This document shows positions 25,590 to 49,526 of a stretch of DNA of 64,000 nt, one piece after another (position 1 is the stretch's first letter; each line of letters begins with the position of its first letter). This stretch comes from Mercurialis annua (taxonomy: Eukaryota; Streptophyta; Magnoliopsida; Malpighiales; Euphorbiaceae), in contig NC_065571.1 in NCBI RefSeq assembly GCF_937616625.2, forward strand, positions 21,712,201-21,776,200. Direction: 5' to 3'. The notes under the pieces were generated by a model. It was not told the origin of the DNA and ran no database searches. It worked only from the letters and a program-made list of their open reading frames with translations. A program made the position numbers and the translations under genes.

Positions 25590-27604
25590 AACTTGGTATC
25601 AGAGCTTTGGTTTCAAACCAAGGCCTTATGCATGTTATGTGTTTATTAGTTTGGCATGATATTTTGATGTCGTGTCATAGGAACTACTGCGAATTAGGAT
25701 TCATGTCTTGTCTTTTAAAACGTCATCTTTTGTTTTCAAACTTTCAGCCTACATCCTATAGGTGATGTCTGTCAATATTTATTTGGTGTTGATTCTATGA
25801 TTGATAATTAATTTCACTTGGATGTTGCTTGCTGTGTTTTATCATGTTGAGGTTATTTCACTTGGGTGATTATAATTGCTTTTGGTTTCTCGGGAAATCT
25901 TAGGTTTGTAAATTTTTCTAAACTCATACCTGTGTATGATGTTGTTTGATAAATTTTGGTGTTTATGCTTGATAGGATTTAGAATATATGGTATGGTTAC
26001 GGTTATTTTACATGATGCTTGAACTGCTTTTGCCTCATTAATAAAGTACATCTTGGCTTTGGCCTCTATTGTTGATTTTAAATGTGATCGTATGTTAGGC
26101 GTTAGCCTTGTCTTTCTATTAAAGAGATTTTGGGTTAAACCTTAAAACGTGTTTTGATGGTCATGCACTGTTTGACCACATGTTGATTTAAAGGTTTTCA
26201 TTGAGAATATTGTTTTATCCGATTTGTGTTTCGACACAAAATCATAAGAGAAGTTTGATTTTAAATTCTTAAAAAGTTTGATTTTGGTTGAGTTACCAGT
26301 AAAAAGAAATTCTTGTATTTTGAAATATTATGTTTGGTTTTGTGTTAACAAGCGATGATTTCAAAATGATATTTTATGAGATGAGCCATTGTTTTAAGAA
26401 TTTAACGTTGAAGTTATTTTATCATGTTGTAGTATGTCAACATTTTAAATTTTTGGGATTTACGGAATAGATGTTGGAGATTAAAGATTTCTCACTTGAG
26501 TTTTTAAATTACTGTTTAGCGGTTGCGTTAAGTTGAGCTCCCAAAGTTGAAACGGTGGAAATTTGATTAAAATATATTTCTGAATTTACAAATATTTTGA
26601 ATACGTTTTATAAATTGTTGTTTTGAGTTCGACTTGGGTCACTCAAATTTAGGAGTTGAGCTTGATAGTTGTAATAACTCGGCTAGCTTGATGATTTTAT
26701 GGTTTGAGATACTTGGGTATCCGTTTTAAATAAATTGATAAATAAGAAGAGACTTTTACAAATTGTGATTTTGTTTTAACCGTGGGGTTCAACTAAAATT
26801 TGGAAGTTTTCGTAATTGACTTTAAGATTTCAAAATAAATTTTGAAGCGTATTCTTGAAAGATTATATATTACAGAATGATTTTGTTACGAAAATTCAAA
26901 GCTTGTTGTGGCATGTCCTGATTTTGTCTTTTAAGTATGCTTTGATTAATTGTTTTCAATGGTTATGCTTATGTGGTTTATGGATTGTAGGAATCATAAT
27001 AGCTTTGGTTTTAATTTGTGTTGTATAACTCGATTGTCTGTTGGACTAAGTTGATTGTACATGTTTTTCTCTTCGTGCGGAGCAGCACATGGGAAGATTT
27101 ATTCACGTGGTCAAGGTTGGCTTACCTTGATGTATGATTCGTGGATCGAAATCTTTGGGGTTCGATATCAAAGAAGACAAGGGAAATATTCCCTTGTAAT
27201 GGTTGATGATTTCTGAATATCTTATAACAGATATTGGAAATTCTGACCGAGAAGTTAGATCAGTGTATTAATACACTGATTCTTTCATCAAGTATGCTGA
27301 TGCGATGCGGGAACTGGCAGTAAATTTTGTAGGAACGTATGTGACATGGTATTTTCGTTGGGTATAAGTTTCAATTAGGGTTGAGGTTAGTTGGATATTT
27401 ATGCGGAAAAGTTGTAACAGAATTATTAGGTTGAGTTGTTATATAGCATCGAATGTTGCTAGGTTGCAAGTGAGGAATTTGAGAAATATTTTGAGGTTAT
27501 CGAGTGCACATCTCACAGAGTGTAACGTCTAGCAAACATTTTTTTTTTGAGAAATTGATTTCAAAGGTTTAATTGTTAAAATATTTGAAATATTTTCAAT
27601 ACGC

Positions 27605-27804
27605 AATTGTGCCCAGACATATCATGAACATGCATTTTGAATGTCACGAATAGGATTGCATTGAGTACTCAGTATGTTCACTAAATAAAAGATAAACAAA
27701 AAATTAATACATGCATAATAGTACATTCATCACGTGCATAGAAATGATTAGGGTTGGATGCAACTCTTTGGGGATGAGAGATGTCATCACCCTGGTGCAC
27801 AATT
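27605..27804 (+). ncRNA. Conserved structured domain, copy in E
   Basis: A basal stem of 12 bp pairs AATTGTGCCCAG (27605-27616) with CTGG-t-GCACAATT (27792-27804), with one bulged T. On its 3' side is a hairpin, GATGA-gagatg-TCATC (27773-27788), preceded by GCAACTCTTTGG. Copies in F, G and I keep the pairing while changing bases. It lies about 2.0 kb after the 5' LTR. Function unknown; RNA packaging, dimerisation or translation control are possible. It is not an annotated RNA family that I recognise. Confidence 0.6.
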
Positions 27805-29343
27805 ATTTAAAATGGATTTTTCGATAAAGTGTTTTGAGAAAGATGTTTTGCAGCGAGCTCGCGAGTCAAATTGTGATATATTTATAAAGTTGTCGGACTT
27901 GAAATGATGTGAAATTGTTACCGAAAGGTAGCTAGACAAATACTCTGTGATGATGGTGGCAAATTTTGGACGATTACATTGAAATGGATCAGTCTGTATT
28001 GTCAGAATCATGTGTTTCATAGGAAGTGAAAATAAATTTGAGGTTGCGCTCGAGATATAGTTGTGCCAAGTGCGGTGTATGGTTAGATTCAAATTAGGAA
28101 GTGTTTTGACAATTTCCGATTTGTGATTTAAGGATTTATGGATTAAGGATGTTGGTCATGCTCCATGTGTGTGTATACACTATATTTTTGTTTTAACGAA
28201 ACTTTATTTTTCAGATTTGAAATTTTCCAAGTATTTTGGTGTATTGGTGTAAAGGTATTTCCATAAAAAGGAGATTTACATTGCTAATTTTACCTTTCTG
28301 AGGAAAGGAAGAAATTTTGTCAAAATTGATTCAAAAGGGATAATAAATTTTTCTCTTGAGCGATTTGTTCAATTGTGTTTTTTTTTTGCAGTTGAACTGT
28401 TTCATAAATCTGCAATTTCTTTTTAAAAGTAAAGAGAAATTGTGGATTTCAAGTGCGAGTAATTTGAAAATTTTCAAGGGTTTACAAAACCGATGGTTTT
28501 TCAACGGTAAAGGTATTTTGATTTTGAATGCAAAATGAGGTGTAAGACGTAGAGTCTTTTAAATAGGACTGGAAAATTTTGTATATAAAATATTTTTTAT
28601 TAAAAGATTTTATACCCCTAGGGGTTGGTTTTTAGCATACCTAACAATCCGGTCGTGGTGTTGTATATGAGATTATAGTCATTTGATTGAATAATTTTGT
28701 GAATTTGAGTTTGATTTGAATATATGTGTTAGAGAATCGAGGATCGCGCTATATAGGTTTCGACAACCAGTATTAGTTGATCGATTTTGTTGATCGATGA
28801 TATTATAATAATTTTTGGATATCGTTCGGGTCAATAGCTGAACCCTTAGTGTGGGCGGAAATTTTTTAAGTTGTGCGATATAAGTGAAATGCAGTCGATG
28901 CTCAGTTTAGTTGTGGCGTTATATTTCTGAATGATCGAAGGAGTCATTGTGTATGGGACTATTTATTACTAATCTAGAGATTCTATTATTATGAGTTCAT
29001 ATTTCCTTAGGAATAATGGTATGCATTTTTGTGTTTCATAATTCACGAAGTTGATTGTATTATCGAATTTGATGTTAGTCATTGGATTGGATGATCCTAG
29101 TAGTGTTGTATTTAGATATCGAGGTCATTATAATTGTTAAGATTCGAGCTGGTTTTGGAAGCCACTACGGTATAGAATAATTGTGACTCTCAGTTGGATA
29201 ATTGTTGATTATTCACATTGGGTTGATCGAGTAATCGTTAGAGCACCTGGTCGTTAGAATTAGATTTTTGCGCGTATGTGTGTTGTGACGGTTATAGTAC
29301 AAATAAGTTCATATTTGAAATTCGAGGTCGAATTTTTCATAGG

Positions 29344-29880
29344 TTGGGGGAAATGTAATACCCCATATGTATTTTTGGCGTGTTTCGTCTTGTGTTGACC
29401 TTCTCTAGGTGGAAATTTAAATTAGAGTCATCATTGAAAAAGATTCAAGGTTCGTTCTTGATTATCCTAAGTATTTAAGTCGAGGTTTATGTGGGAGAGT
29501 TGCATTCCTTCGTTTGATTTTACCTAGAAAGGGCATTATCATTTTATGTTAAATGGAAGTTAGTATTAAGGCTTTTGTGACCTTTTCAAATTGTTCGATT
29601 TATGAAAGTGGTGGTTTTTTTTTGATATCGTTCGGGGAACAACCTGTTGATGAATAAAAGAATTCCTATGATTACAGTTTCAGTTGGTTACTTGAGGAAT
29701 GTTCTTAAGAGACAGAGTTTGTTATGCAAATTTGTTATTTTGCTTTCCTTAATTCCTTTGGGTAACATATTTATGTGTTTTCACGTTTGTTACGTGTATT
29801 TTTGTTCAGCCGACAAATAGTTTTATGATATGTTTTACGTGGATTGTTTTGTTTTAAATTCGAGGACAAATTTTTATTAA
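29344..29880 (+). other. Internal second polypurine tract with LTR-like fragment
   Basis: ATTCGAGGTCGAATTTTT, then TTGGGGGAAA (29344-29353), directly precedes TGTAATACCCC at 29354. This is a complete PPT/LTR-start junction inside E. About 530 bp later the same arrangement repeats (TTCGAGGACAAATTTTT, GTTGGGGAGAA) at the real 3' LTR. The stretch between is not recognisably the E LTR. It is probably a remnant of another element's LTR start captured by template switching or recombination. Confidence 0.65.
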
Positions 29881-29891
29881 GTTGGGGAGAA
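29881..29891 (+). promoter_or_regulatory. Polypurine tract of element E
   Basis: GTTGGGGAGAA immediately before the 3' LTR start (29892). It is preceded by TTCGAGGACAAATTTTT, the block that recurs before the PPTs of F and G. It would prime plus-strand DNA synthesis in this retrotransposon class. Confidence 0.85.
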
Positions 29892-31251
29892 TGTAATATC
29901 CCGTGTTTTCAAACTCGTTTTGATGGTTTGGTTGTTCGTTTAAATTTGGTTTGTGATGGACTTTGGTTGTGTTTTCGCTTCGACATGTTCTCGTTGTGAT
30001 TCCGACTTATTTTCGGATTGATATATGTTCGGATTAGCATATGTGGTACCTTGGCTGTGTTATGTTGAGCGACTTATGTGTACCCCTTGAGCCTCTAAGT
30101 ATTTGATGTTGAATTGATTTATTTCCGGGTTTTTATCGAAACAATGTTTGCATGTTTTCCAAATCTGCCATGCTGTAGTAAAACGTACATATCTCCCAAT
30201 TGAACCGTTGGATCGGGCTGCCCTTTGGATATGTTGTACATAAGAGGATTATCTTTCATTCGACAGTTCGGATCGTCGTTTCGACTCGTTTTCGGGTCAA
30301 CCGGACCTGCTGGGTAGATCAAGCCGTAGGTCCGGTGCACTTCGTTTTTGGTTAGAGCAGTGGGTCAACCGGCCCTATAATCGGACCTGTTGGGTAGAAC
30401 CGGTCGTAGGTCCGGTCAGCTTCGTTTTTGCATATTTAAACTCCGTTTCTGCGACCTAATCAGCCCCCTTTCGATTTTAGAAACCCTAAACTCATTCTAA
30501 ACTCTTTCTAAACGTTTCTCACTCGATCTTTGGTGCCTCAATCAATTGGTAAGTGATTAATACATCTCTTTTCATTCCAAAACTTTGAATCATCTTTTGA
30601 TTCAATTCGTGGTTCATCTTGTCTTTTGATTTCGTTCTTGTAGCGTTGGATCTACCTGGTTTCTGAGATTTTCTTACTCTTTGGATTGACAAGGTATCTA
30701 ATCCTTTTACTCAATCTGATTGTTGTGTTGTGGTGTTGTTGTTCATGTTTTGTGATGTTGTATGTTGTGACTATGGTTTGGATGAATAGTGGCTGTTCTT
30801 TCATGTTCTTTGGTTGATTTATTATGTTGATATTATTGTTATCATCCATTGCATGTTTATTGAATCAAATCAAGAATCGGTTACCTTAGATTCACAATTT
30901 CATATTGCTTTATGTTTAAACTGTTTTGAATTGATTAGGGCTGCCCATAACTAAATTATCATGTTATTAATAATTGGATTTTATTATTGTTGATTCATAT
31001 TAGGAGGATTATGTATAACGCCGATTGATGCATCAATTTGTCATTCATTGTAGTAATTGACTCGTATGTTCTTGGTTGGTTAATTTGAATCAGAATTGAG
31101 TTAACCAATTGTTAGTTCATGTGTGGTTTAGAATTATGGATTCATTTGGATATTATAAATTGTTTGGTTGCCTAGATTTGTCCAAGTATGATTATAGGGC
31201 TGATTTGCATGTCTTTGCGATTCATAATTGTTGGGCTATCTATTGTTGTTT
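29892..31251 (+). repeat. 3' LTR of element E, first part
   Basis: Begins TGTAATATCCCG and follows the 5' LTR of E closely up to TATTGTTGTTT, where F is inserted. Bases 31247-31251 (TGTTT) are the target-site duplication of F. The LTR continues at 40470. Confidence 0.92.
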
Positions 31252-31715
31252 TGTAATACCCCAAAATATTTAATTGTTTAATTGGACTACGTGTCCAGTT
31301 TAGAGTCGCAGAAGTGATGATATTGGAAAGTTTTCCGATAAATAAGTTTTAGTAGGTCGGTTTTAGAAAAGATTATTACGGAGAAAATTTATATTATATT
31401 TCAATTCTAAAGTTAGAATTGGAATTAAAAGGAAAAATGGCAAGAAAAGTCAAAAAATAAGTACAGGGACCCAAGTGGTAATTTAGCCACTTTGTGTCAG
31501 AAATGGAAATTTTAGATTTTTGACGGAAAAGTATTAATATCGAGTTTCGTATTATTTATCGGGGATAAATAATACGTATAAGTCATAATAAAAGAATTTA
31601 TCGATTTAGTTATGGGCTAAATCGTACGAAAGGAAAGTTTAAAAGATAAATGATAGTAAGCAAAAAGAACAAGGACCAAAGTGAGCTTTTAACCTTAATA
31701 TATAAGGTTTTGAAT

Positions 31716-31874
31716 ATGAAACAGAAGATGAAGAAGAAGAATCGAGAGAAAGCAAGAATCATCGAGCGATACCGTCGTTTCGCCGCCGTTTCTCCGATCG
31801 ACGTCCGATTCAAGCGATTCAAGTGGCGATTTCTTAAGAATCGAAAGCTCTATCATCTCCGGCCATTAAATTAA
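31716..31874 (+). CDS. Small basic ORF in the F LTR, function unknown
   Basis: A 52-residue reading frame, rich in Lys and Arg in its first half (MKQKMKKKNREKAR) and again near the end. It begins about 10 bp after a TATA-like TAATATATAAGG and stops at TAA, directly followed by a donor-like G/GTAAG. The same frame is open in the 3' LTR (about 38440-38599) with only minor changes, but the two LTRs are recent copies, so that says little about selection. It may be a short upstream ORF in the leader, or merely open by chance. I do not recognise a domain. Confidence 0.25.
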   Translation: MKQKMKKKNREKARIIERYRRFAAVSPIDVRFKRFKWRFLKNRKLYHLRPLN

Positions 31875-32043
31875 GGTAAGAGGTCGGGTTTGGCTTGAAA
31901 ATGATGGGTTTGATGGCTGTTTTGAGTTTTATAGCGTATTGGTTTGAATTTGACGTTTTTGAAGTTATTATGCCGTTTTTTGAAGAAACCGAGATTTGGG
32001 TATTGAGTGTGGGTGTGTGAAGCACGTCGGAATGGTGGTAGAA

Positions 32044-32275
32044 CCCCGGAAATCGACTTCCGGGGGGCTGTGCACGTGGTGCACGAACGTGCACTAAAAG
32101 TGCACGAACGTGCACCTCGCAAGGTGCACGAACGTGCACCTGAAGTGCACGAACGTGCACTCTTCATGGTGCACGAACGTGCACTAGAGGTGCACGAACG
32201 TGTACCCCTAAGGTGCACGAACGTGCACTTGGTTGCACGATCGTGCACCCACCGAAGGGCACGCCCGTGCACCCC
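32044..32275. repeat. Palindrome array GTGCACGAACGTGCAC in 5' LTR of F
   Basis: It opens with CCCCGGAA-atcgac-TTCCGGGG. Nine units then follow, mostly GTGCACGAACGTGCAC, each an inverted repeat of 7 bp with a 2-nt centre, with spacers of 5-8 bp. Late units are TGCACGATCGTGCA and a degenerate GGCACGCCCGTGCACC. Some spacers are themselves palindromic (CTTGCAAG in the other LTR). The reading frames seen across it (repeated VHERA or VHVRA) are repeat read-through. The array sits about 170 bp after the GTAAG site. Confidence 0.9.
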
Positions 32276-33780
32276 GACTCACCCCCACGCATATGTGAAC
32301 TGTATTCGACCTAGGTATTTGACGTTTTTGAGTACTTGACTCTAAAGGACGAGTTTCGGACTTTAATAATCATAATCTCAAGATTAGCTCGGCGTTTTAG
32401 GTAACTAATAATAATAGAAACGTCAAGGAAGTTAAGCGATTCTCAATTATGAGAAATAGTATTCGCTAAGTCGTTTATACGACTAAAGTTATTGAATACG
32501 TAAATAAGTATAAGATGAAACCAAACCCTAAAACATAGAAGTATTATATATAAAAAAGCATAAGTTTCACGTCTAACTACTAAACAATTTATCAGACGTG
32601 TCAGCGAATAGTGGGGTCAGTAGAAGCGGACTAGCGAGAGCGTACTATCAGATCGATCACATCATTACTTGGATAGCGGTCTCTGTGAGTTGCATTTTAC
32701 TTTCGTGTATTATATATATAAAGTTATTTTATATAAATATGTGTACTGTTTTTTACGCATCGCATGTTATATGATTTGATTAAATGTCACATATTTCTAT
32801 TAAGTTTATTTACGAGAACTAGTATGCGATCCGAAGAAACTAGCTACCTATTGGGTGTCAATAGGCTGTGTGATCATCAGTATCGAGTCAGTCTAGTATG
32901 TTTGCATTTGAGAAATGACTTGACACAGCTGGGAGCTGATGATGATTATGAAATTTACGATTGGGTATATGATTTGATACGAGTGAGTACTCGGCTACGG
33001 TGTAGTCCGGAGTCCCCGTATCTAGTGGCTGGGCCACCAGCGAGTTGGACTCGCGATTGATATTTACGATTGGGTTGAATGATAATGATTATTCGAGAAA
33101 TGTGTCGCATGCTAGGATATTAATTTCGTACGGATCAAATACATGTTTATATGTTTCATATTATTGTTTTCTTGAGATGCGATGCTATGTTACTATATTA
33201 ATATTGTCGGTAAATGTCAACTCACTCAGTATTTCCCCAAATACTGACCCCTCACCTTTGATGTCTTTCAGGTGCTTAGTTTGTCGACCTAGCTAGAGGC
33301 CAATTTTGAAGTCCAGAAGTCAGCTGTGTATGTATAGTTTCTGACTTCTGAGAATGCTGCAGTAGTGGTCCTGTGTCGACGGAATAATAGCCTAGACAAC
33401 AATTCCTTTTGATTGTATATATTAACTGCTGTCATTGTTTTATATGATTTTTGGTAGGCTACGTGTTTGGTATATGGTCCACGGCCCCAGGTGCCGGTGA
33501 GATGTTTTGAGACACTAACTGATGTATATAGTACCGCGAGGCCAGATCGTACAGGGTACGGTAATTAGAGCCCACGAGGTTTTGAAACAGTTAGTGTACA
33601 TGTTTGATTATATGATATATATAAATGTGTTGCTTCCGTTGTTTAATGTTAATTGTTTAATGTATTCATTTATTATTTGCGAAAAATTAATAGTGATTTT
33701 AGGCTTGCTACGGGTTCCGGAGCTACCACTCCCGTTCCCTAGCACCGGTTGCGGCTCAATATTTTGGGTCGTGACAATGT

Positions 33781-33792
33781 TGGTATCAGAGC
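33781..33792 (+). promoter_or_regulatory. Primer-binding site of element F (tRNA-iMet)
   Basis: TGGTATCAGAGC, four bases after the LTR end, is complementary to the 3' end of plant initiator tRNA-Met. The leader then contains ACTACTGCAGCA (33872-33883), complementary to U5 of the same element. From there to about 34178 is leader sequence with no clear ORF. Confidence 0.9.
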
Positions 33793-34178
33793 AGTTTGGT
33801 CTAGTTACCACTGCTAGATTTGTCTGATTGTCTGTTTGACTGAAAGTATTTGTCAGTAAGTATACCTAGGAACTACTGCAGCAATGAGTCAGACCTTAGT
33901 TGTCTGTAACTGTGTTATATGTGCATTAGTAGTAAGTGACGTGGCACGCGCAAATCAGGGTTATTATGATAACACATAATTAGCATATGTATATATGAAC
34001 GACTGAGATGACTAAGTGAATATTACTTGCGCTGAGGTTATTAAGTGGATATATGCTTGCGAATTACGTGCGACGGGATTAAATGCTAAATGTTTACAGC
34101 GTTTTATAAACTGATATTGGAATTGCGTGTGAAATGGGCTCAAATGGTCGCTTACGTTTGAAATTGTTTCTTTTCAGC

Positions 34179-35261
34179 ATGTCTGGGCAAAATGGAGCTC
34201 AGTCGCATGCTGAGGAAGAACGGGAGGAAGCGCCTCCTATATTTCAAAACGGATTTCATAATGAAGTAGGCGAACCATCTGGGGTCCATCAGAATGGATT
34301 CCACGCAAATATTAGAGCATCGCCAGAGATATATCAAAATGGTTTTATGTCTTTGACGGAGATAGGTAGTTCTTCTGGAAACAGAGTTAGAGTGCATTCG
34401 CCGGAGATAGAATACAGCGAAGAAGAGGAAGAGGAACCGAAGGAGGATCCGGAAGAGGATCCTGAAGAAGACCCTGAGGAGGATCCTGAGGAGGATCCAG
34501 AAGAAGAATTAGAAGAGGAAGCAGAGGAGGAAAATCCTCAGGAGGAAGAGTATGAAGAAGAAGAACAGTTAGATGAGTTAGACGTCGAAGATTACAGAGG
34601 TGACTATTTCTGGTCTAGTGTGCGGAGATACCGCAATTTGGGGGAAGATGCAGACATAGCCAACGGTCAGGCGCAGATAGCCCTAAATCAGGTTAGGAGG
34701 TAGATGCGTTCTTTTTCTAGAGGGATGTTAACTGTAGGAGCGTACTCTACTGATTTTCTGCGGATGGCTGAAGGAGTCCCTGACCTGAATGAAGACAATA
34801 GAACCATTAATCGTAGATATGTCAGGGGTTTAGGACCTCAGTTTGATGAGCTGTATGAGCACGTGGACGAACATTTTAGCACACTTACTACAATGGCCCG
34901 TAGGATTGAAACAGAGCATGAATGGACGGGCGATCCGGTACGACCCTATTACTTTAGACGTGAGTACCACCCAGACTACGTCAGTACGTCCTCCAGAATT
35001 ACAACTAACCCCTATTTTGTGCAAAGAGGTGGAAGAAACTCCGGTAGAACAGTTAGGGGCCGACACACAGGCGTAGTTATTAGGAACATAGCGTTCCGCA
35101 TCAGGCACCTCCTGGTATTAGTGATTTACATGCTTTACGTAATTGTGATTATATGTTTGCATGATTGTGTTCATATATTTGCTGCATTGCATGATAGAAT
35201 AGGATATGCCTATAGGATAAAGCCTCGGAAAGCGAGAACCTATAGGAAGCATTGTAGTTAA
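34179..35261 (+). pseudogene. Shortened gag of element F with one in-frame stop
   Basis: Reads as one frame of about 360 codons with a single TAG at 34701-34703. The start is taken at MSGQNGAQ (34179), right after an acceptor-like TTCTTTTCAG; an upstream in-frame ATG at 34134 is also possible. The N-terminal part has three QNGF-containing repeats (about 17 residues apart), then a strongly acidic stretch with EEDP repeats. After the stop, residues resemble the end of a Ty3/gypsy Gag domain (MLTVGAYSTDFLRMA, then RRYVRGLGPQF and ARRIE); compare H at 56840-57030. The middle of Gag and the CCHC zinc knuckle are missing. The tail is hydrophobic (LLVLVIYMLYVIVIICL) then basic, and is probably not gag-derived. 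The protein may be made as a truncated product, by read-through, or not at all. Confidence 0.65.
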
Positions 35262-37966
35262 ACACACGCCTAATAAAAGAACATATAAATATAAGTCACA
35301 AAAACAATAATATAATATATACTACACAATACATTTGTAGTGAACGTAATTCTTATATTACGTTCTAAACGTAGTAAAGAAAAGATATATTACGAGAAAA
35401 AGAGAAATTAAGGTAGAACATCGGCACTTGCGTTTGTATCTGATGTGGTACAGAGTGTCGGAGAAGTGAATATGGTGATTATAGCAATAGAAAATTTTGA
35501 ATTTAACTGAGATGTTGGAGATATGAAGAGAGAAAGGATATGACAGAAAAACAGTCTATAAATGACAGAAAATGGCAGCAATACAAAAATTTGAAATATA
35601 TCCGTTAAGTATAAAAAAAGCCGTTAATAATTGCAGAGCGTATAATCTAGAGTAAACTTACGATTTTATAAAAATTTTGAAAGTTTTTATGATTTTTAAG
35701 GTACAATTGTGCTCAGACATCGCATATGATACTGCATAATCCGGTAGGAATGCATAAGAAAATGATTTTCAAAATGTAGATCATGCATCATATCTTTATA
35801 ATGACAAAGAAAATGCGATTTCGAGCAACTCCTTGGTGATGAGAGATGTCATCACTCTGAGCTACAATTGTACTAACGATTTCAAGCGATTTATGAAAAG
35901 TGGTTTAGAAAGAGCTGCGCTGCCAAAAGAAGTTTTAAAATCGTTTTGTTCAGTGAGTAAACTCTGATATAAAGCCCTGCGACAAATAGTAAAAGATTCT
36001 TAACAAATAAGAATAAAAATTGTAAAAGAAACTCTAATAACAAAATAAAGCCATATTAATAATTATTGCAACGAAACTAATGAAGCTAAAGGAGTTATCG
36101 TCGGAAAGCATACGCAGATAAGCTGCGATGCACTGGCAATATTTAAGGATACAGTATTTATCTTTATGCAAGAGTAAAGGGTGGAACGACAGGGAGTCGT
36201 GCAAGACGAAAAAAACGTAACAAATACGTAAGGACGAAGAATATAACGATTATTCTTATGGTGAAATAAGTAGCATAGCAAACGAGGAACACAATAGAGA
36301 AAAGAAATTGAAAGTATAAAGGACGAGAAGATGATACTATAAATGATGAACATGAAGTGATATTTAAAGGATAGAACTTTATCAATGTCAGTGTTCGAAG
36401 ATACAGAAGTAGAAAGAGAAAGGTTACGAAATGATGAAGCAGACGATTTTGCAAAATGTGAAGGTGATTTTGCAAGATATGAAAGTTAGAAATTTGATAG
36501 ATCAAGAGAGATAATAATGCTATATGACTGATATTAAGCGAAGTCACTAATATCAACATTAAGAGCTATAGATCGCGTTAACAGAAAGGAGAAAAGTTAA
36601 GTTGTAAAATTCTAGTATAATTACGTATCGGTAAATGTAAGAATTATGGATATTATGAAAGAAATTAATGAGTAAATTCATATGCCCTCAAAATTTTACA
36701 AGATGATTAGAGACATGAAAAGTTTTAGAGATGTGTCAGAAGGATTATCAGAAGGAAGCAGCAATCCCAGAACTATTATAAACAAAGGAAAAATGTAATG
36801 AATACAGTAAGTAAAGGATAAGATGATACTTCATTGCTATCGAACAGATAGAAGTAAATTTTATCCAAGAGACCATGATGTCATAAGGACGAGAGTTGGT
36901 GCTAGTGCAGAGAAATCAACTTATTTAAAAAGAATAATTAGGATCATAATATAAGTACTACGGAAACACTTCGAGAAGAATTCTCGAAACAGCAAGACGA
37001 TAAAGAAACATATGAAATTCTTATGGGGTTACCATAAATATGGAATAGTGACGTAAAGGGAAGACAACTTTGACTAAAAAGTCAATAAGAAATTCAAAAT
37101 GAAATTCAAAAGAGTAATTAGAGGAAAGGTGAAGAAGATAAGAAAATGAGGATACGAATAGTATCGGTCAAAGAAGAAGGTTGTACAAGTTACACAATTA
37201 AGGTAACGTAAAATGGAACGTTTAGGGTAACGGAAAAAGGAATGAAGGATCGTAGTCAACAAATGAAATGAAATACACAATAGTTCGGAAGAGTAAAGGA
37301 AGGAGAAATAGAAGATAGTAAAGAATGTATCAGGTTTAGCTATGTTAAGAGACAGTGAAAGTATTTAACATAGTTCAAGTTGAGAAAGATTGGTTAATGA
37401 AGAATGAAGTGTCAGACAATGATAGAAAGAAGTGAAAAATGACAAGAACCAGTAAGAAAGGAAAGTGATAGTTACAGATGACAGTAAAGATCATAACTGC
37501 AAGTTATGATTACAAGAGAGACTATTCGTAGGAATATGCATAAGGTAAGTACATCATTAAGATGAAATTAACACGTCGTGACTATTCACGTACAAAGAAA
37601 ACTAGTAGCAACCTATAGCTACTAAGAATGAAATGAGATGGGAAAGCATTAGGTTATGATTAGTTATAACCAAGTAGAAATGACGCAAAGATTATGATGT
37701 TAAGGATGCATCTACAGCTACATTATTCTGGAAAAACGACAGATGAAACAAAGATGACAACGAGAAGATTCTCAACTAAACAGCAGTAAGAAGCTACGGT
37801 GAGCAAAATAGAAAGTCGATTAATGAGATCACAGCCATACGTAGAAAGTTAGTAGTTTAAGTAAAAAAATAAGCTGCGATCAAAACGTATTAAAGGACGT
37901 CAAAGAAATTGTAAGGACAATTTAAGATTCCAACAAGATTTATGAAAATTCGAGGACGAATTTTTA
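35262..37966 (+). mobile_element. Purine-rich non-coding interior of element F
   Basis: About 2.7 kb without recognisable coding sequence. The structured domain lies at 35705-35869. After it the + strand is dominated by A and G (many AGAAAG, GAAGA and GATAAG runs); the long reverse-strand ORFs here result from that bias. A shared TCTGATATAAAG...GACAAATAG motif near 35960 parallels E. Element I has the same type of region on the opposite strand (60083-62110). Confidence 0.75.
35705..35869 (+). ncRNA. Conserved structured domain, copy in F
   Basis: AATTGTGCTCAG (35705-35716) pairs with CTGAGC-t-ACAATT (35857-35869): 12 bp with one bulged T. The hairpin GATGA-gagatg-TCATC is at 35838-35853, extended to GTGATGA/TCATCAC, and is preceded by GCAACTCCTTGG. 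Relative to the E copy, the changed base in the left arm (C to T) is matched by G to A in the right arm. It lies 1.9 kb after the 5' LTR and downstream of gag. Confidence 0.6.
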
Positions 37967-37967
37967 T

Positions 37968-37980
37968 AAGGGGGGAAGAA
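37968..37980 (+). promoter_or_regulatory. Polypurine tract of element F
   Basis: AAGGGGGGAAGAA immediately before the 3' LTR, preceded by AATTCGAGGACGAATTTTT. This is the classic plus-strand primer layout of plant Ty3/gypsy elements. Confidence 0.93.
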
Positions 37981-40469
37981 TGTAATACCCCAAAATATTT
38001 AATTGTTTAATTGGACTACGTGTCCAGTTTAGAGTCGCAGAAGTGACAATATTGGAAAGTTTTCCGATAAATAAGTTTTAGTAGGTCGGTTTTAGAAAAG
38101 ATTATTACGGAGAAAATTTATATTATATTTCAATTCTAAAGTTAGAATTGGATTTAAAAGGAAAAATGGCAAGAAAAGTCCAAAAATAAGTACAGGGACC
38201 CAAGTGGTAATTTAGCCACTTTGTGTCAGAAATGGAAATTTTAGATTTTGACGGAAAAGTATTAATATCGAGTTTCGCATTATTTATCGGGGATAAATAA
38301 TACGTATAAGTCATAATAAAAGAATTTATCGATTTAGTTATGGGCTAAATCGTACGAAAGGAAAGTTCAAAAGATAAATGATAAGCAAAAAGGACAAGGA
38401 CCAAAGTGAGATTTTAACCTTAATATATAAGGTTTTGAATATGAAACAGAAGATGAAGAAGAAGAATCGAGAGAAAGCAAGAATCATCGAGCGATACCGC
38501 CGTTTCGCCGCCGTTTCTCCGCTCGACGTCCGATTCAAGCGATTCAAGTGGCGATTTCTTAAGAATCGAAAGCTCTATCATCTCCGGCCATTAAATTAAG
38601 GTAAGAGGTCGGGTTTTGGCTTGAAAATGATGGGTTTGATGGCTGTTTTTGAAGTTATTATGCCGTTTTTGAAGAAACCGAGATTTGGGTATTGAGTGTG
38701 GGTGTGTGAAGCACGTCGGAATGGTGGTAAAACCCCGGAAATTGACTTCCGGGGGGCTGTGCACCACGAGTGCACGAACGTGCACTAAAAGTGCACGAAC
38801 GTGCACTAAAAGTGCACGAACGTGCACCTTGCAAGGTGCACGAACGTGCACCTGAAGTGCACGAACGTGCACCCTTCATGGTGCACGAACGTGCACTAGA
38901 GGTGCACGAACGTGTACCCCTGAGGTGCACGAACGTGCACTTGGTTGCACGATCGTGCACCCACCGAAGGGCACGCCCGTGCACCCCGACTCACCCCCAC
39001 GCATATGTGAACTGTATTCGACCTAGGTATTCGACGTTTTTGAGTACTTGACTCTAAAGGATGAGTTTCAGACTTTAATAATCATTAATCTCAAGATTAG
39101 CTTGGCGTTTTAGGTAATTAATAATAATAGAAACGTCAAGGACGTTAAGCGATTCTCAATTATGAGAAATAGTATTCGCTAAGTCGTTTATACGACTAAA
39201 GTTATTGAATACGTAAATAAGTATAAGATGAAACCAAACCCTAAAACTTAGAAGTATTATATATATAAAAGTATAAGTTTCACGTCTAATTATTAAACAA
39301 TTTATCAGACGTGTCAGCGAATAGTGGGGTCAGTAGAAGCGGACTAGCGAGAGCGTACTATCAGATCGATCACATCATTACTTGGATAGCGGTCACTGTG
39401 AGTTGCATTTTACTTTCGTGTATTATATATATAAAGTTATTTTATATAAATATGTATACTGTTTTTTACGCATCGCATGTTATATGATTTGATTAAATGT
39501 CACATGTTTCTATTAAGTTTATTTACGAGAACTAGTATGCGATTCGAAGAAACTAGCTACCTATTGGGTGTCAATAGGCTGTGTGATCACCAGTATCGAG
39601 TCAGTCTAGTATGTTTGCATTTGAGAAATGACTTGACACAGTTGGGAGCTGATGATGATTATGAAATTTACGATTGGGTATATGATTTGATACGAGTGAG
39701 TACTCGGCTACGGTGTAGTCCGGAGTCCCCGTATCTAGTGGCTGGGCCACCAGCGAGTTGGACTCGCGATTGATATTTACGATTGGGTTGAATGATAATG
39801 ATTATTCGAGAAATGTGTCGCATGCTAGGATATTAGTTTCGTACAGATCAAATACATGTTTATATGTTTCATATTATTATTTTCTTGAGATGCGATGCTA
39901 TGTTACTATATTAATACTGTTGGTAAATGTCAACTCACTCAGTATTTCCCCAAATACTGACCCCTCACCTTTGATGTCTTTCAGGTGCTTAGTTTGTCGA
40001 CCTAGCTAGAGGCCAATTTTGAAGTCCAGAAGTCAGCTGTGTATGTATAGTTTCTGACTTCTGAGAATGCTGCAGTAGTGGTCCTGTGTCGACAGAATAA
40101 TAGCCTAGACAGCAATTCCTTTTGATTGTATATATTAACTGCTGTCATTGTTTTATATGATTTTTGGTAGGCTACGTGTTTGGTATATGGTCCACGGCCC
40201 CAGGTGCCGGTGAGATGTTTTGAGACACTAACTGATGTATATAGTACCGCGAGGCCAGTTCGTACAGGGTACGGTAACTAGAGCCCGCGAGGTTTTGAAA
40301 CAGTTAGTGTACATGTTTGATTATATGATATATAAATGTGTTGCTTCCGTTGTTTAATGTTAATTGTTTAATGTATTCATTTATTATTTGCGAAAAATTA
40401 ATAGTGATTTTAGGCTTAGCACTCCCGTTACCTAGCGCCGGTTGCGGCTCAATATTTTGGGTCGTGACA
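37981..40469 (+). repeat. 3' LTR of element F
   Basis: Near-identical to the 5' LTR. Differences: the palindrome array (38757-38985) has ten units against nine, through an extra TAAAA-spaced unit; about 24 bp are deleted near 38650 and another stretch (GCTACGGGTTCCGGAGC) is lost near 40420, removing half of the terminal hairpin. The LTR ends GGGTCGTGACA at 40469 and is followed by the TSD TGTTT. Confidence 0.93.
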
Positions 40470-42150
40470 TGTTTCGAATCCAAGTTTGGTGATTGTTAAA
40501 TGAGTTGGTATGTTGATGAATGCCTGTAAACTGTTTTAGCTTAATTTAAATGTTTAGGGCTGTTTTGTATAATGTTTTTAGGATAATGTTATACTTGGAT
40601 TGTGGTGGTTAGTTTGGTTATTGACATTTCTTGGGCATGATGAATACGCTTATTGTTAATTTGTTTGCTAAGGCATGTTTTGATTTGTGTTGTCTATTAA
40701 AGCGTGTTGGTTCATTATGGATTTTATCAAACACTTTGTTACGTGTTGATTAATTGGTTAGTTAAGCGATATTGAGTTCCTTGTTTTTCAAACTCGGGTT
40801 TTGGAATATTAATTGATTCTGGATTTTTAAACATTGGTTTACAACTTGGTTATGTTGAATCGGGTTAGACTTGGGTCGCCCGACATGTGAGTTAAGCTTG
40901 GAAGTCTTGGTTGACTCGACTAAGTACAATTTTGGCTTTTGAAATGTTTTACCAAATAGTTTGAAAAGGTTTCCGGATTATGTTTTCAAATGGAACTCAA
41001 TAGGGCTTAACCTGTTTTGCGGATTTGGCATATGGTTTGTGTTTGTGTAATCAATCTGTTTTAGTTTGTGCTTTGGCTTTGTTGTGTTGTGCTATTCCTA
41101 TGTGGTGTTTAGTACTCTTTAGAGTTAGGGTCCGTTTTTAATTTATTATTTACACATTGTTAGACTTGTCGACTGTTCGTGTTCCGGAGACGAACCAGGA
41201 TTAGTTGCTTGCCAGGTTATCACGTGGATTAGCAAGCTGTGAGTTTGTACTTACTATTTACCGCTTTATTAAGTAAACTGTTATTTTAATATATATAAAT
41301 ATATACTGTATGTATATTTCGAACTGTTTTTCCATTATGGCTTTTAGTTGGAACATGCTACCTAATGGGCATCATTAGGACTGCGTGCGGACCGGTATTG
41401 ATCTAGATAAGGTATGTGAAATGTGGTGGTAACTCGGTGTGAGCATAGTTCTCGGGATCAGAAGAGTAACTCGGTGTAGCTCAGCTCTCGGGACTCTGGT
41501 TATGAATTAAGAGTGGTTGGTGGTAACTCGGTGTAGCTCAGCTCTCGGGACCAAGCCTACTGGATTATGGAAATTATTTAGTATTGTGGATTAGGGTTCC
41601 AACTATTAAACGTAATGTTGTTATTAAATGTTTTAAATGGTTTTAAAGGTTTTCCACTTGATAAATGTAAATAGTGGTATGAACTCATCTCTGTATATCT
41701 GACCCCGTTGTTTTCCCAATTTTTTCAGGGTTATGATATGAGCGAGTCAGCTGCTCTCCAATTCTTTATTTCCTCGGAGGTTTTACTTTATTTTATAAAG
41801 TTTATTAATCTAATTTTATTCTTAGACCGCAGTAGTAATTAGAAGTCGTATTTGTCTAATACTTGTTACCAGAATTATTCTATTGATTTAATTGTTTTGG
41901 CTTTAATATAATAACTTGGGTTATTAAATATTTATGCTATGTTGGAGACTCGGTATTGATCGAGCATTTATTATATAAATGTTGTATTTTATGAACTGCT
42001 AGAACTAGGCTGAAGTCTCAGTTGCCCCCGAGCATTGGTTTCTTGCAGGTTTATGTAATTGTTGGTTATCCGCAAGGCTAGCTACGGGTTTTGGTACAAC
42101 CATACCCATACCCTAGCACCGGTCGCGATTCATAAAAATAGATCGTGACA
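40470..42150 (+). repeat. 3' LTR of element E, second part
   Basis: Continues the E LTR from TGTTTCGAATCC to GATCGTGACA. It contains G-box 41221-41226, hairpin CCTAATG/CATTAGG 41361-41379, three GGTAACTCGGTG units about 41425-41555, and CGCAGTAGT 41828-41836. The last is fully complementary to ACTACTGCG in E's own leader at 25683-25691. Confidence 0.92.
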
Positions 42151-42342
42151 AGTTAACCCACTCACGAACGAGAATTAACATTTTTTTCTTTTTTTTTTCT
42201 TTTTGATTTTAAAATATTAAATGGTTGAACCACAAATTAACCCACTCATGAACCAACACGAACCAGACCATTAACTTCAATTTTACTTCAAACCGATCGG
42301 AAAATTTGTCGGAAAAACACTGAAAATTTACGGGGTATTACA
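42151..42342 (-). repeat. Solo LTR D, terminal part
   Basis: Ends CGGGGTATTACA on the + strand, the inverse of an LTR start TGTAATACCCCG. It is followed by ATTTT (42343-42347), matching ATTTT before 19401, which proves that everything from 19401 to 42342 entered G's 3' LTR through the single insertion of D. Only 192 bp of this side remain. Confidence 0.85.
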
Positions 42343-43481
42343 ATTTTACTACTGCGGTCTAAAAATAAAAATTTAGTTTGACAATTTGTTAAAATGAAAT
42401 AAACCTCCAAGGAATAAAGAATCAGAGATCAGTAGACTCGTTCAAAATAATAAACCTGGAAAATGGGGAAAACAACGGGGGTCAGATATACTGAGATGAG
42501 TTCGCAATACTATTTACATTTATTAAGTTTAAAACCCTTAAATCAAAACCCTTTTACACTAATATAATATATACGATTATGTAATAACAGTATTGAAATG
42601 ATCCCAGCGTAAGTATGACATAGCATACTGAAAAACACAAAGTGTACGGGAACAAATCCTCGTCATATACCAGCGTAAGCAAGACCTTAGTCTGCCGATC
42701 CCAGAGTACTTACCGGTGCACACAATCTCGATACAAGCCTATCGAGTAGCTCGTTCCAATCCAGATCCATAATCGCCTAAAACAGTTCGAAAACATTTAT
42801 AATACTAAATAAATTGCGGTACTTAATAAAGCGGTCAATAGCACTACAAACTCACTGCTTGCTAATCCACGTGAAAAAACCTTGGCAAGCGACAAAACCT
42901 GAATCGACTACGAAGCACGCACAGTTCTAAGGACATGGTAAAAACCAATATTAAAATAAACCTCTAACTCTAGAGAATACTAGACGCCACATAGGACTAA
43001 CACAAATAACAAGTCAGGTAAAGCATACAGAGTAAACACAATACGTACTCAGACAAATAGAAATGCCATAACAAAACAAGTCTATTGAGTTCTCGCTTTA
43101 AAATCCATTTCGGAAAATATTATTTAAATACTATTTAAATAATAAATTAATTTAAATTCAAAAACAATAATGGGTTAGCCGAGTTATCGATAACTAACAA
43201 TCTAACCTCAAATGTCAGGCGATCCAAGTCTAACCCGACCCACACTTTATCCAAAATTATAAACCAAGTTTATAATTTTACAAAATACCCATTTGATAAA
43301 ACAATAAATTAATGCTTAAAACGGAACTGAATAACTTAAAACTCAAGTAACCAATAATTACTAACAATTTACTTGATTAAAATAAATTTAAAAAAAATGT
43401 TTAAAATCTTAAACGTCAAATTGACACGTCTAGTCAATAATTCCATAATTTAATAATTACCGAGTAATTATAATTTATTGG

Positions 43482-43531
<50 letters not shown>

Positions 43532-45011
43532 TATATATATAAAATTACCGCTCTTCATTATAATTATAAAAATAAATTAAATTATAATGAAGCGAATATT
43601 ATTTTGAAATTTAAAATAATGCTATCGAATTGTAAATTTAGAACTCAAACAAAATTCAAAAATTCAAAATAAAGATCAATAAAAATAATAAGTATAATAA
43701 ATCAATATCCTTTAATAACACAACCAATGGAAAATAAGGAATGATACATGGCCCATCATTTTGAAAAAATGATCAATACAGTACATATGTCCCAAACGTA
43801 ATTAACAATTAAGCCCAACATAATTCAGTAATTTAAGTAACCTTTTAACCATCTTCCTCAATTCCAATAACACCCGCCAAACACATTCAAAAGCTATAGA
43901 TTATAACAACACACAGACCAAACTTCCAAAGCTAAGACTCAACAAAAATACCAAGCAATACCCAAGCAACTCTCATCAAAGCTAACTGAGATGATACCTC
44001 AACAAACAAGAATGAATTTACAACAATCTTGAATCAATTATTTATGCTAATAACTCGCAGCAAGGAAATTTAGAATCTGAGGACAATGATGAAAGCAATT
44101 TGAATACTAAACCTAGTAGATTCAGTTATAGCCTAACTAAACAAGAGGTAACAGATATCCAACACAAAATCATACTCCAAAGGAATAATAGCAAATTGAC
44201 AGAAGCTTTGATACCAAACAAAGGAACCATAACACGTAAAAATACGAAGAAACGACGGCGACTATAGCGGAATGATTTAAGTACCGTTTGGCAAAAACGA
44301 AGATGAGAATCGTAGAGGCATGTGTCTACTACGGCTGAGACAAGACGGATCTCAATTTGATGCTATAACGAATGAGATATCGGTTAAGAGCGGAAGTATC
44401 AATTTTTAAACAAAATCTAAGAATAAGAAAACGGTGAAACGACGGCAATCATAACGAATTGAGTAACGTACCAATTTACATTTCGAAGTTTAGGGATTGT
44501 AGAGGATTAAGTCTACTACAGGTGGGACAAAACGGCTCCCAATTTGATGCTACAACAATTAAGATCGAGCTAAGGAACGAAGGTATTGATTTATAACCCA
44601 AACTGAGAAACTGAGATTTGAACTCACCGATTTTGCAGCGAGATTTTTAGAGAATATTAAGATGTAATGACCGTTAGGGTTTGCTAGAATTGGTAGGGAT
44701 AATTTAGGGTTTGAAACGAGTTTAAATAGGAAGGGAAACGTAAGGAAAAACGGAAGAAAAAGGAACTCAAACTGTAACTTTCAAATTATACAGTGTCTCG
44801 TTAATTTTGAATAGGAAATGCATGGGCAGCCATCCAAGGAAAAGGAAATTTGATCTTGGGCCAACCAAATGGGCTTAATCAAAATAATCAAACTAAAAAC
44901 CAACCAAACATTTAATTTAAACCACGAACTGAACCAAGAATCCACACGCGATTTCAATTATTATTACCGAAAATTCATCACAAAAATTAAAAAAAATTAC
45001 GGGATATTACA
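42343..45011 (-). repeat. 3' LTR of element G, main part
   Basis: Resumes at ATTTTACTACTGCGG and ends GGGATATTACA (45011). It aligns over its whole length with the 5' LTR of G (49804-52431). Hairpin CTCGATA/TATCGAG is at 42727-42746 and G-box at 42868-42873. A (TA)n run at about 43484-43530 is far longer than in the 5' LTR copy. Donor-like sequence (sense TTG/GTGAGTTC, inverted here as GAACTCACC) lies near 44620. Confidence 0.92.
43484..43540. repeat. (TA)n microsatellite
   Basis: About 27 TA dinucleotides with one interruption. The homologous site in the other LTR of G (about 50943-50960) has about nine, so it has changed length since insertion. The apparent ORF with repeated IY residues is an artefact of this run. 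Confidence 0.9.
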
Positions 45012-45024
45012 TTCTCTCGAACTT
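45012..45024 (-). promoter_or_regulatory. Polypurine tract of element G
   Basis: The complement reads GTTCGAGAGAA before TGTAATATCCC. It is weaker in G runs than the tract of F, but the upstream TTCGAGGACGAATTTTT block (inverse at about 45030-45050) is intact. Confidence 0.75.
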
Positions 45025-46922
45025 ATTAAAAATTCGTCCTCGAATTTACCACAAAACCAAAGAAATATAAAATCAATTATAGCGCGCACAAAACCACACG
45101 TAACACACAAAATACGGATCAACGCATCCCCTGCAGAACGAAAGAAAACAACAACGCATCTAGATATTCGATTTTCCATATCACTCTACGATCGAGTGAC
45201 AAACCCAAACAAAAACAAAATAAAAACCGCATAATCAACCTTTTGAAAACATCACTGCAATCTCAACAAATTTCTCGTGAACGACAACTTCAACGAACTG
45301 CTCACTCACTTCAAGCAAAACCAAACCGGCCAAACTATTATCTGCTTAACATTACCGATAAAACCCGTCTTAGTGAAATCTTAAGGAAAGAAAAATCTCA
45401 CCAAAAGATAATCCTACCGCAATGAAGTTCGAGAAAAGTCAAAACAAAACTGAACCTAAAATTGAATCGAAAACTCGAAAGGTCACCACACGCTTATGCG
45501 AAAAATTTGGAATTCAACAATTTGGTACCTCAAACGACTTCTCAAACACCACGAGTGGACGAATTAATTTTTTATTTTTTTTACACCGGGAATAACCAAC
45601 ATGCTATACAAGAAAAATTTCGAAAATAACAGGCTCAAATCTCAAAGACTACCAAAGCAACACTATAAGTGTAGGAAATGTCCAAAATTCAAATCGTAAC
45701 CTTACTAAGCCAAACTCCAATGCTATAAAACGAAACATACAGACGCTCTCACTGAAACTAATCTTACATCTCTTAACGTCTATGCACTATATTATTCCGT
45801 GATCACAACACCGAATAACTCATGAGAATCTTAAAACTCCTGTTAACAAGCATATAACAACCCAAAATGTCGTCCTGATTATATAAGCTCTCACAACTAA
45901 TGGCTGAAAATTAAACACCACTAAAATCGTCTTCGTTCAACTAACAAAAATCAGTTTAACAATATCATCAACTTCGCAAACCAAGATGTACGAAAACACA
46001 TAAATTTCAAAGGAAATCCTGATTTAAACTCCTGACAACAAAATTTTTCATCCTCTACATTTATTTTAAATCATTAAAACATCGAATCCTACCGAAGATT
46101 ATTTAGATCAATTCGCAATCAATCGGATTATTGGTTATGCTGAAAACGAAATTTTTCTAGAGAATGCTTTCCGCAAATATAAATATATAAATAACACCAT
46201 CCCCCTTTAACTTTTGAAATTACTAGCACCTCCAGTTAAATTTCATTTTCAACCTAAAATAATTAACCCATTGAAAAATCATTTTGTTCGTAAATGCATC
46301 AAGATAATAAAATACTCTCAATCTGAAATCTCCATAGAACTTTACTTTAAAAATAAATTCACGATTTTTATAAAATCGTTCATTATAAAAAAAATTTAAA
46401 TCTACTTTTAAATCAAGCTGATAAAATTTCATCACTTTCCCAGAAAATAAATTATGTAAATAAGAACCCCCTTTGTTTACGAAATAATTTCCATACCGGT
46501 ATCAAAACTTTTTAAACAGATATTGAATCTGTAAAAACAAAATTTCCTTTAAGTTTTTTTTTTTTTTAAAAAAAACACACGCAGAGCATAACCAATGTTC
46601 TTAAAACAAAACTCTTTAAATTATATACTCTAAGCTGACACAATTCTTTAATCTGAACGAAACCTCGAGTGTAACCTTATATCCATAGCTCCTATTTACC
46701 AAATACTGATACTCCAACAATATTGAATAAATTCTTACACTGCAATTTCTCTTAAATCACCACCATCATCACAGAGTATTTGTCTAGTTTCCAACCACAT
46801 AAAAATTTCAAAACCGTTTGAATTTTAATAACCTTTTAAGCACTATTTTCACAATATAATTCGCGAGTTTATAACAAAACATTTTTTTTGAAAAAGTCCT
46901 AATGATAAAATTTATTTTACAT

Positions 46923-49522: not shown

Positions 49523-49526
49523 AGTT

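What the first reader, a model, noticed from the sequence alone, without database searches (positions are those of the whole stretch)
35705..35869. A covarying 165-200-nt RNA-like domain shared by four non-coding or gag-only retrotransposons
Seen: copies at 27605-27804 (E), 35705-35869 (F), complement of 46923-47117 (G) and complement of 62111-62290 (I). Each is closed by a 12-bp stem with one bulge: AATTGTGCCCAG/CTGGtGCACAATT, AATTGTGCTCAG/CTGAGCtACAATT, AATTGTGCCCAG/CTGGcGCACAATT and AATTGTGCCTAG/CTAGtGCACAATT. Changes in one arm are matched in the other. All hold GATGA-GAGANG-TCATC near the 3' arm after GCAACTCYTTGG, while the middle diverges. The copies lie in two LTR families. Inference: a cis-acting RNA element that lets protein-less elements use gag-pol in trans, for example packaging or dimerisation. 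Established: LARD interiors have been proposed to be under structural rather than coding constraint.
Basis: partly seen in the sequence, partly recalled or inferred. Interest (0 to 1): 0.86.

Follow-up and report, generated by a model that had tools for sequence, protein, structure and literature searches.

The report
RNA domain of pol-less retrotransposons
Thousands of jumping elements in this plant genome that seem unable to make their own copying enzymes share a folded RNA segment whose paired bases change together, while the complete elements examined lack it, so it is probably a signal that helps such elements get copied by others.

Summary
The four copies are exactly where stated. The window's genome (probably Mercurialis annua, inferred) has 2,364 exact matches to the core motif, the reversed-pattern control none. 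The described stem is the inner part of a larger domain, about 350-520 nt, closed by an outer helix 60-250 nt further out. Both helices covary across 13 hand-picked representatives of five groups: a structured RNA. In four between-lineage comparisons the core is the best or near-best conserved stretch. 36 of 40 copies show no 5-bp duplication around it; four copies of one group do. None of 46 domain loci shows RT, RNase H or integrase nearby. None of 100 listed copies lies within 3 kb of an RT motif. None of 6 gag-pol elements, examined from PBS to PPT, contains it. Carriers are non-coding or encode only a Gag-like protein under purifying selection, with an RGG-rich tail. One young non-coding carrier has a 1.4-kb interior. 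Best explanation: a cis-acting RNA signal of pol-less elements, most likely for packaging or dimerisation; NMD evasion or stability is a serious rival. Function is untested. LARDs with structured interiors and gag-only partners are known; this domain has no Rfam match.

The parts
27605..27804 (+). Inner domain, copy E (closing stem, divergent middle, GCAACTCTTTGG, hairpin, 3' arm)
27513..27950 (+). Extended domain, copy E: outer helix arms 27513-27521 and 27942-27950, second helix GTCTAGC/GCTAGAC just inside
35705..35869 (+). Inner domain, copy F
35631..35982 (+). Extended domain, copy F: outer arms TTGCAGAGC and GCCCTGCGA, located by hand because the script picked another place for both arms
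46923..47117 (-). Inner domain, copy G
46769..47205 (-). Extended domain, copy G with outer helix
62111..62290 (-). Inner domain, copy I
62007..62375 (-). Extended domain, copy I with outer helix ACAGAGT/ACTCTGT
22544..42151 (+). Element E: 5' LTR 22544-25589, internal 25590-29891 without recognised coding sequence, 3' LTR 29892-31251 continued after the nested F to about 42151
31252..40469 (+). Element F nested in E: LTRs about 31252-33778 and 37981-40469, TSD TGTTT at 31247-31251 and 40470-40474
34110..35261 (+). Gag-like remnant of F as two open frames (34110-34703, 34704-35261) separated by a stop
42343..52431 (-). Element G (LTR copies 49525-52431 and 42343-45011, internal about 45013-49524), no recognised coding sequence
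60244..63824 (-). Element I: LTR end and PBS near 62813, LTR remnant up to 63824; lower boundary not fixed (sequence similar to I-type relatives reaches 60244)
54449..59905 (+). Element H: degenerate gag-pol element (gag, RNase H, integrase zinc domain by Pfam), leader 82% identical to E, without the domain

Best explanation
Shown: the segment is a structured RNA domain about 350-520 nt long, carried inside LTR retrotransposons that lack pol in every sample examined. An outer helix and an inner 12-bp stem with an outward extension keep pairing through compensatory changes. Between them lie strongly conserved motifs: GCAACTCYTTGG, a GAGANG hairpin loop and an ATGCAT palindrome. Inferred: it works on the sense RNA as a cis signal that lets RNAs without their own pol enter particles made by others, as a packaging and/or dimerisation signal. 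It may be read by the small RGG-tailed Gag of the gag-only members (F and J types), with RT and integrase supplied by autonomous elements. Non-coding members (E, G, I and L017 types) would then exploit both partners. The fold and the restriction to pol-less elements were tested; the recognition step was not.
For: Structure: 13 hand-picked representatives of five groups. Outward extension 59 of 65 cells paired against 48.3 (sd 2.6) when 3' arms are dealt out anew; inner pairs 9-12 47 of 52 against 41.7 (sd 1.4); outer helix 84 of 90 against 78.8 (sd 1.2) in the 10 with confident arms, or 102 of 117 against 95.5 (sd 1.6), p 6e-4, in all 13. Sliding the arms drops pairing to 0.10-0.67. On 16 inner copies the covariation score 0.150 exceeds all 500 shuffles, and slid versions pair in 31-50% of cells against 94%. 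Selection: 60-nt windows in the core are 92-95% identical for F/L011 and up to 92% for E/G, 92% for J/L017 and 87% for I/L019, most surroundings lower; F-group against L011/L035 has dS 1.4-2.1 in gag, while the L037 and L011 cores are 95% identical. Restriction: no PR, RT, RNase H or integrase match in 46 domain loci at 41 places; 0 of 100 listed copies within 3 kb of an RT motif; no model match in 16 RT-bearing loci at 10 places, 6 of them complete from PBS to PPT. Mobility: LTR distances of E, F, G 0.020-0.034; an I-type element with TSD ATATG keeps the domain in a 1.44-kb interior without an ORF of 150 codons. Gag link: gag-like ORFs in F and J types, dN/dS 0.09-0.13 between L011/L035 and the F group; L017 is J-like with a gap where J has gag.
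Against: No RNA-protein contact, packaging or dimerisation was tested. The gag-pol family whose leader resembles E's lacks the domain, so it is not a signal shared with that family's own RNA. Helpers of the F, I and J types, whose leaders do not match that family beyond the PBS, were not identified. Inner pairs 1-8 and the 3' hairpin hardly vary and give no covariation support (p 0.51). The number of pairs with a double change (2) is reached by 364 of 500 shuffles, and further pair types (6) are fewer than the shuffled mean of 8.0. The outer helix was not found in L044 and is degenerate in L045 and L080. G.U against A.C counts favour the sense strand in representatives (13 to 5, counted) but not clearly over 41 copies (48 to 38). 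The palindrome is mostly predicted paired in single molecules. Within the F group some gag pairs have dN/dS up to 0.46.
Confidence: 0.42

Rival explanations
1. An RNA stability or NMD-evasion element, working like the RSE of Rous sarcoma virus: RNAs whose ORF stops early (gag-only) or that have no long ORF would be degraded, and the domain shields them. Autonomous elements, whose ORF runs nearly to the PPT, would not need it.
For: In 13 of 13 gag-bearing loci the ORF ends 539-826 nt before the domain's 3' end, leaving a long 3' UTR, while in the six PBS-to-PPT gag-pol loci the last frame ends 116-117 nt before the PPT. This explains presence and absence without invoking Gag. The RSE is a 400-nt element just downstream of the gag stop (PMC4764554, passages). 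An ENE in Evade raises RNA stability and mobility (PMC12501189, abstract start in listing and passages).
Against: RSE action depends on closeness to the stop codon; here the gap to the outer helix is about 300-600 nt, and E, G and I have no gag. No CU-rich cluster was looked for.
Confidence: 0.27
2. A nuclear export element like the RTE of IAP or the MTE of MusD, recruiting export factors to intronless RNA.
For: RTE and MTE are structured elements in LTR retrotransposon RNAs (PMC12786077, section 2.2). A GTRAGT helix strand in I and F types could also involve U1.
Against: Autonomous elements would also need export of unspliced RNA and the six examined lack the domain; I do not see the GTRAGT strand in E and G, and J has GTAAGC.
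Confidence: 0.13
3. A former MITE or other TIR transposon inserted in the ancestor; the stems are its terminal inverted repeats.
For: Inverted repeats at both ends; the middle diverges. Four of 40 copies, all of the F group, have a 5-bp direct repeat within 4 nt of the outer helix, where re-dealt flanks give 0.76.
Against: 36 of 40 copies, including the E/G, I, J, L017, L019 and L068 types, have none. The repeats covary pair by pair, two nested repeat pairs exist, and the core outlasts most of its flanks.
Confidence: 0.03
4. The domain acts on DNA, or as a source or decoy of small RNAs, rather than as a packaging or stability signal.
For: Paired arms would also form in antisense transcripts; the G.U excess is weak over 41 copies.
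Against: Conserved unpaired motifs and imperfect, bulged helices are not needed for that.
Confidence: 0.08

Closest known systems
LARD elements such as Sukkula (PMC7215508, passages; the original LARD paper is not held)
   Different: Here a delimited domain with tested covariation, shared between non-coding and gag-only groups and absent from the RT-bearing elements examined. What the original LARD paper showed could not be read.
Gag-only partner elements: RLG_Quinta with RLG_Cereba (PMC11302176, abstract and passages); pol-less Athila (PMC2410132, passages); TR-GAG (recalled, paper not held)
   Same: Gag kept while pol is lost; for Quinta an autonomous partner sharing LTR ends, PBS and PPT; for Athila purifying selection on gag and env
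   Different: In the Quinta paper the terms 'secondary structure' and 'RNA structure' do not occur; here a covarying RNA domain accompanies the gag and is also found in elements without gag
ENE triple-helix element of Evade (PMC12501189, passages)
   Same: Structured cis RNA in a plant LTR retrotransposon that raises mobility
   Different: The Evade ENE has U-rich tracts and lies in the 3' UTR; 5 of 14 representatives have no T run of 5 or more in the domain, and it lies 0.66-3.2 kb before the next PPT-like motif in the 9 loci where one was found
RNA stability element of Rous sarcoma virus (PMC4764554, passages)
   Same: About 400 nt, downstream of gag
   Different: Several hundred nt from the stop, also present without any gag
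MusD transport element and IAP RNA transport element (PMC12786077, section 2.2)
   Same: Structured RNA element in LTR retrotransposon RNA
   Different: No sequence comparison made; the gag-pol elements examined here lack the domain
Retroviral packaging/dimerisation signals (recalled)
   Same: Multi-helix cis RNA with conserved loops and a palindrome
   Different: Normally shared with the autonomous element and placed in or near the leader; here about 0.5-2.4 kb inside and absent from the gag-pol elements examined

Membership tests
Structured (covarying) RNA family | Compensatory base changes beyond chance in named helices | tested here: met
   caveat that shuffles ignore relatedness and that inner pairs 1-8 and the 3' hairpin barely vary
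Known Rfam family | Score above the gathering threshold of a family | tested here: not met
   No match in the window; only sub-threshold matches (5, E 0.79-4.6; 1, E 0.33, five loci)
LARD / non-coding LTR retrotransposon (E, G, I types) | Paired LTRs, PBS, PPT, TSD, no coding capacity | tested here: met
   TSD shown for one I-type element and for F, not seen for E
Gag-only LTR retrotransposon (F, J types) | Gag ORF under selection, no pol | tested here: met
   Pfam Retrotrans_gag only weak for J (E 0.0064, below cut-off) and not found for the two F pieces; similarity to H's gag by tblastn
TIR transposon / MITE | Target-site duplication outside the inverted repeats | tested here: not met
   No direct repeat of 5 bp in 36 of 40 copies; 5 bp in 4 copies of the F group, 0.76 expected; 10 of 61 rows left out because arms were not confidently placed
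ENE triple-helix element | U-rich internal-loop tracts, in Evade in the 3' UTR | tested here: not met
   No T run of 5 or more in 5 of 14 representatives; description from passages of PMC12501189
RSE-type NMD shield | Lies close behind the stop codon and blocks UPF1-dependent decay | tested here: inconclusive
   Distance several hundred nt; decay not testable
Packaging/dimerisation signal | Needed for encapsidation; bound by Gag | not testable with these tools
   ATGCAT palindrome in 14 of 14 representatives, 0.24-0.77 expected, is only suggestive

The most novel reading that the evidence does not exclude
A three-tier partnership: the RNA domain is the dedicated packaging tag of a gag-only retrotransposon guild whose Gag has an RGG-rich tail instead of a zinc knuckle. 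Non-coding elements free-ride on the tag, and autonomous elements that supply RT and integrase neither carry nor need it.
Probability: 0.25. Interest if true: 0.87.

Novelty: new variant of a known kind. Interest (0 to 1): 0.72.

Why it matters
How protein-less plant LTR retrotransposons get their RNA into foreign particles is open. A delimited domain with mapped helices, present in thousands of copies and missing from the RT-bearing elements examined, gives a concrete target: point mutants that break and restore pairing, a candidate Gag to test for binding, and a covariance model that can be run on other plant genomes.

Tried and rejected
Thermodynamic scan: 200-nt windows did not single out the domain (a first version timed out). 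Rfam: nothing at threshold. Viral contigs and genome contigs: no match. A second genome pattern had a gap set too short and gave 1 match, uninformative. Weak hit at 61750-61909(-): E 0.074, its hairpin does not pair, rejected. Splice-site idea: GTRAGT in I and F types is paired, not seen in E and G, left open. Chance is rejected; the MITE reading is kept at 0.03 because of the F-group repeats (that rival stood at 0.02 before this check). Searches for earlier print (listings only, except where passages are cited); none listed a report of this domain that I could see. The library lacks most subscription journals, and the LARD, ENE-survey and TR-GAG originals were not held.

Dropped rows: L002, L005, L007 do not match the 3' pattern and were not in the helix counts. 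L067 has no 5' arm by the motif rule. Five 7-kb loci that repeat places of 3-kb loci were skipped; copy E counts twice there (window and L001) before identical rows were merged. L044, L045, L080 were left out of the first outer-helix test and put back. One search left out rows with far-off arms. One search left out 10 rows. Representatives were chosen by hand. In one search the script placed outer arms wrongly in some copies (the window's F among them), and the totals include these.

Full report
What is there. The four copies are present as written. Three sit in LTR elements with both LTRs in the window. E has LTRs of about 3.0 kb and an interior of 4.3 kb. F is nested in E with a 5-bp duplication (TGTTT). 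G is on the minus strand with an interior of 4.5 kb. I, also minus, is cut by the window end. LTRs begin TGTAAT and end TGACA, followed by the primer binding site TGGTATCAGAGC; a purine tract precedes the 3' LTR. LTR distances of E, F and G are 0.020-0.034, about 0.8-1.3 Myr at 1.3e-8 per site and year (the rate is recalled). E, G and I have no recognised coding sequence; F holds a gag remnant. Element H beside I is a decayed gag-pol element.

Genome. The window lies in a 451-Mb assembly. One of two protein hits for the F gag is an uncharacterised protein of Mercurialis annua, 93% identical over 58% of the query, on a 50,031,057-base contig, close in length to contig C54 (50,028,627); hence that species or a near relative, by inference. 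The core pattern matches 2,364 times, the reversed control 0. A degenerate reverse-transcriptase motif matches 1,658 times. The two patterns differ in strictness, so the numbers compare only roughly.

Anatomy. Of 62 pattern copies, 61 had a recognisable 5' arm and 49 rows were distinct. Going inward there are: an outer helix (E: TCACAGAGT/ACTCTGTGA); a second helix (GTCTAG/CTAGAC in E, G, L009 and L068, GTTTGAA/TTCAAAC in L017); in I, F and J types a third (CTTAC/GTAAG or CTCAC/GTGAG); then the inner 12-bp stem with a bulge that changes place, extended outward by 4-5 bp (GTAC/GTAC, GTAT/ATAC, AACAT/TTGTT and others). The region of the second and third helices sums to 72 Watson-Crick pairs in longest helices of 11 representatives, against 64.3 (sd 2.7, largest 74) in 2,000 re-dealings, so this part is suggestive only. 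Inside are GCAACTCYTTGG, the GAGANG loop (mean unpaired probability 0.73-1.00 in 14 of 14) and at least one ATGCAT (14 of 14, 0.24-0.77 expected).

Covariation. Inner pairs 9 and 10 occur as C-G or U-A on both sides: 7 and 6 of 16 sequences have the double change. The representatives fall into five groups at 55-68% core identity, and changes also occur inside groups, for example AGCAT/TTGCT, AACAT/TTGTT and AGTAT/ATACT within the I group. Permutation results are given under the best explanation. The shuffles ignore relatedness; sliding controls fall from 0.93 and 0.91 to at most 0.67. Over the 49 distinct rows 369 of 441 outer, 207 of 245 extension, 363 of 392 and 179 of 196 inner cells pair. 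Weak points: inner pairs 1-8 and the 3' hairpin hardly vary; L044 has no outer helix; strand asymmetry is not clear over 41 copies (48 G.U to 38 A.C).

Selection. Profiles along four pairs of lineages: for F/L011 the core windows (92, 93, 95%) are the highest; for E/G the core has the highest window (92%), most surroundings being between about 30 and 70%; for I/L019 the core reaches 87%, only the PBS region being higher (90-92%); for J/L017 the core reaches 92%, but stretches downstream reach 93-95%, so the core is not unique there. Gag-like ORFs of the F group and L011/L035 differ at near-saturated synonymous sites (dS 1.4-2.1) with dN/dS 0.09-0.13; within the F group it is 0.07-0.46, and 0.15 between two J copies. 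L037 and L011 cores are 95% identical. Transfer of the core between lineages by template switching is not excluded.

Who carries it. tblastn (E 1e-3) with pieces of H's Gag, CCHC, PR, RT, RNase H and integrase found no PR, RT, RNase H or integrase match in 46 domain loci (38 of about 3 kb, 8 of 7 kb; 41 distinct places). Gag matches occurred in F- and J-type loci, and near an end of L039 and L015. A distant pol could be missed. F and J types have a gag-like ORF 5' of the domain with an RGG-rich tail; no C..C....H....C motif occurs in any sense frame of these 13 loci, whereas H has one. L017 aligns with J except for a gap over gag. The I-type element at C1:5387519-5394001 has LTRs identical over 1,605 aligned bases and 97.5% over a further 928 columns, duplication ATATG, and a 1.44-kb interior, of which the extended domain takes about a quarter, with no ORF of 150 codons.

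Who does not. Sixteen RT-bearing loci at 10 places, the window's H among them, have no model match up to E 10. Six of them run from PBS to PPT, three with a single frame of 1,637-1,642 codons, and have none with filters off up to E 1. All are one family, found by similarity to H. The same model recovers 20 of 20 domain loci not used to build it, E 5.5e-18 or better; those were picked by the core pattern, so this is a generous control. On the first 19.7 Mb of contig C1, none of the 100 listed domain copies lies within 3 kb of one of 67 RT motifs and 3 lie within 6 kb, where 4.1 (sd 2.0) are expected for random points; RTs without the exact motif are not counted. The leader of E matches the family at 80-82%, of the domain-bearing L043 at 85-87% and L046 at 77-78%; those of L020, J and F do not match beyond the PBS. 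So this family is a plausible helper only for the E/G group; helpers of the others are unknown.

Transposon test. Flanks of the outer helix have no direct repeat of 5 bp in 36 of 40 copies; four F-group copies have one of 5 bp, where 0.76 are expected. A shared repeat in one lineage does not make the domain a transposon, but it is told here.

Function. Required cis parts of an element moved in trans are LTR ends, PBS, PPT and a packaging signal (established knowledge). A young I-type element has little more than these plus the domain. That, and the presence in gag-only elements, is why I put packaging or dimerisation first (0.42). The strongest rival is RNA protection: pol-less RNAs have an early stop or no long ORF, the gag-pol elements do not, and the Rous sarcoma virus RSE is a precedent (PMC4764554, passages). 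Export elements (PMC12786077, section 2.2) explain the absence from gag-pol elements less well.

Known and new. Gag-only partners of autonomous elements are known (PMC11302176; PMC2410132), as are LARDs said to specify conserved RNA structures (PMC7215508) and a structured RNA raising mobility (PMC12501189). New here, as far as the listings show, is a covarying domain shared by non-coding and gag-only groups and restricted, in the samples examined, to elements without pol.

Noticed in passing
1-2272, 5243-15246, 52426-52825: Arrays of a satellite with about 59-bp spacing, interrupted by LTR sequence at about 3638-5242
   Followed up: no
26606-26699 (+) and 48352-48444 (-): A second conserved block between E and G (80% over 94 columns) upstream of the domain in otherwise hardly alignable interiors; function unknown
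   Followed up: partly
about 27092-27291 (+): Window of E folding much better than shuffles (z -6.1 sense, -5.6 antisense, 25 shuffles each), not part of the shared domain
   Followed up: no
L012:108-1004(+), L034:1-846(+), L011: Gag-like proteins with an RGG-rich C terminus and no CCHC motif; two database searches gave only 3 hits in all
   Followed up: partly
3' strand of the third helix in I- and F-type copies (F: 35953-35958): GTAAGT/GTGAGT, like a 5' splice site, paired with ACTTAC/ACTCAC; J has GTAAGC
   Followed up: no
L043: G-like domain element whose leader is 85-87% identical to the gag-pol family, more than E's 80-82%
   Followed up: no
L011, L031, L037, L064: A 5-bp direct repeat within 4 nt of the outer helix in these F-group copies only
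   Followed up: no
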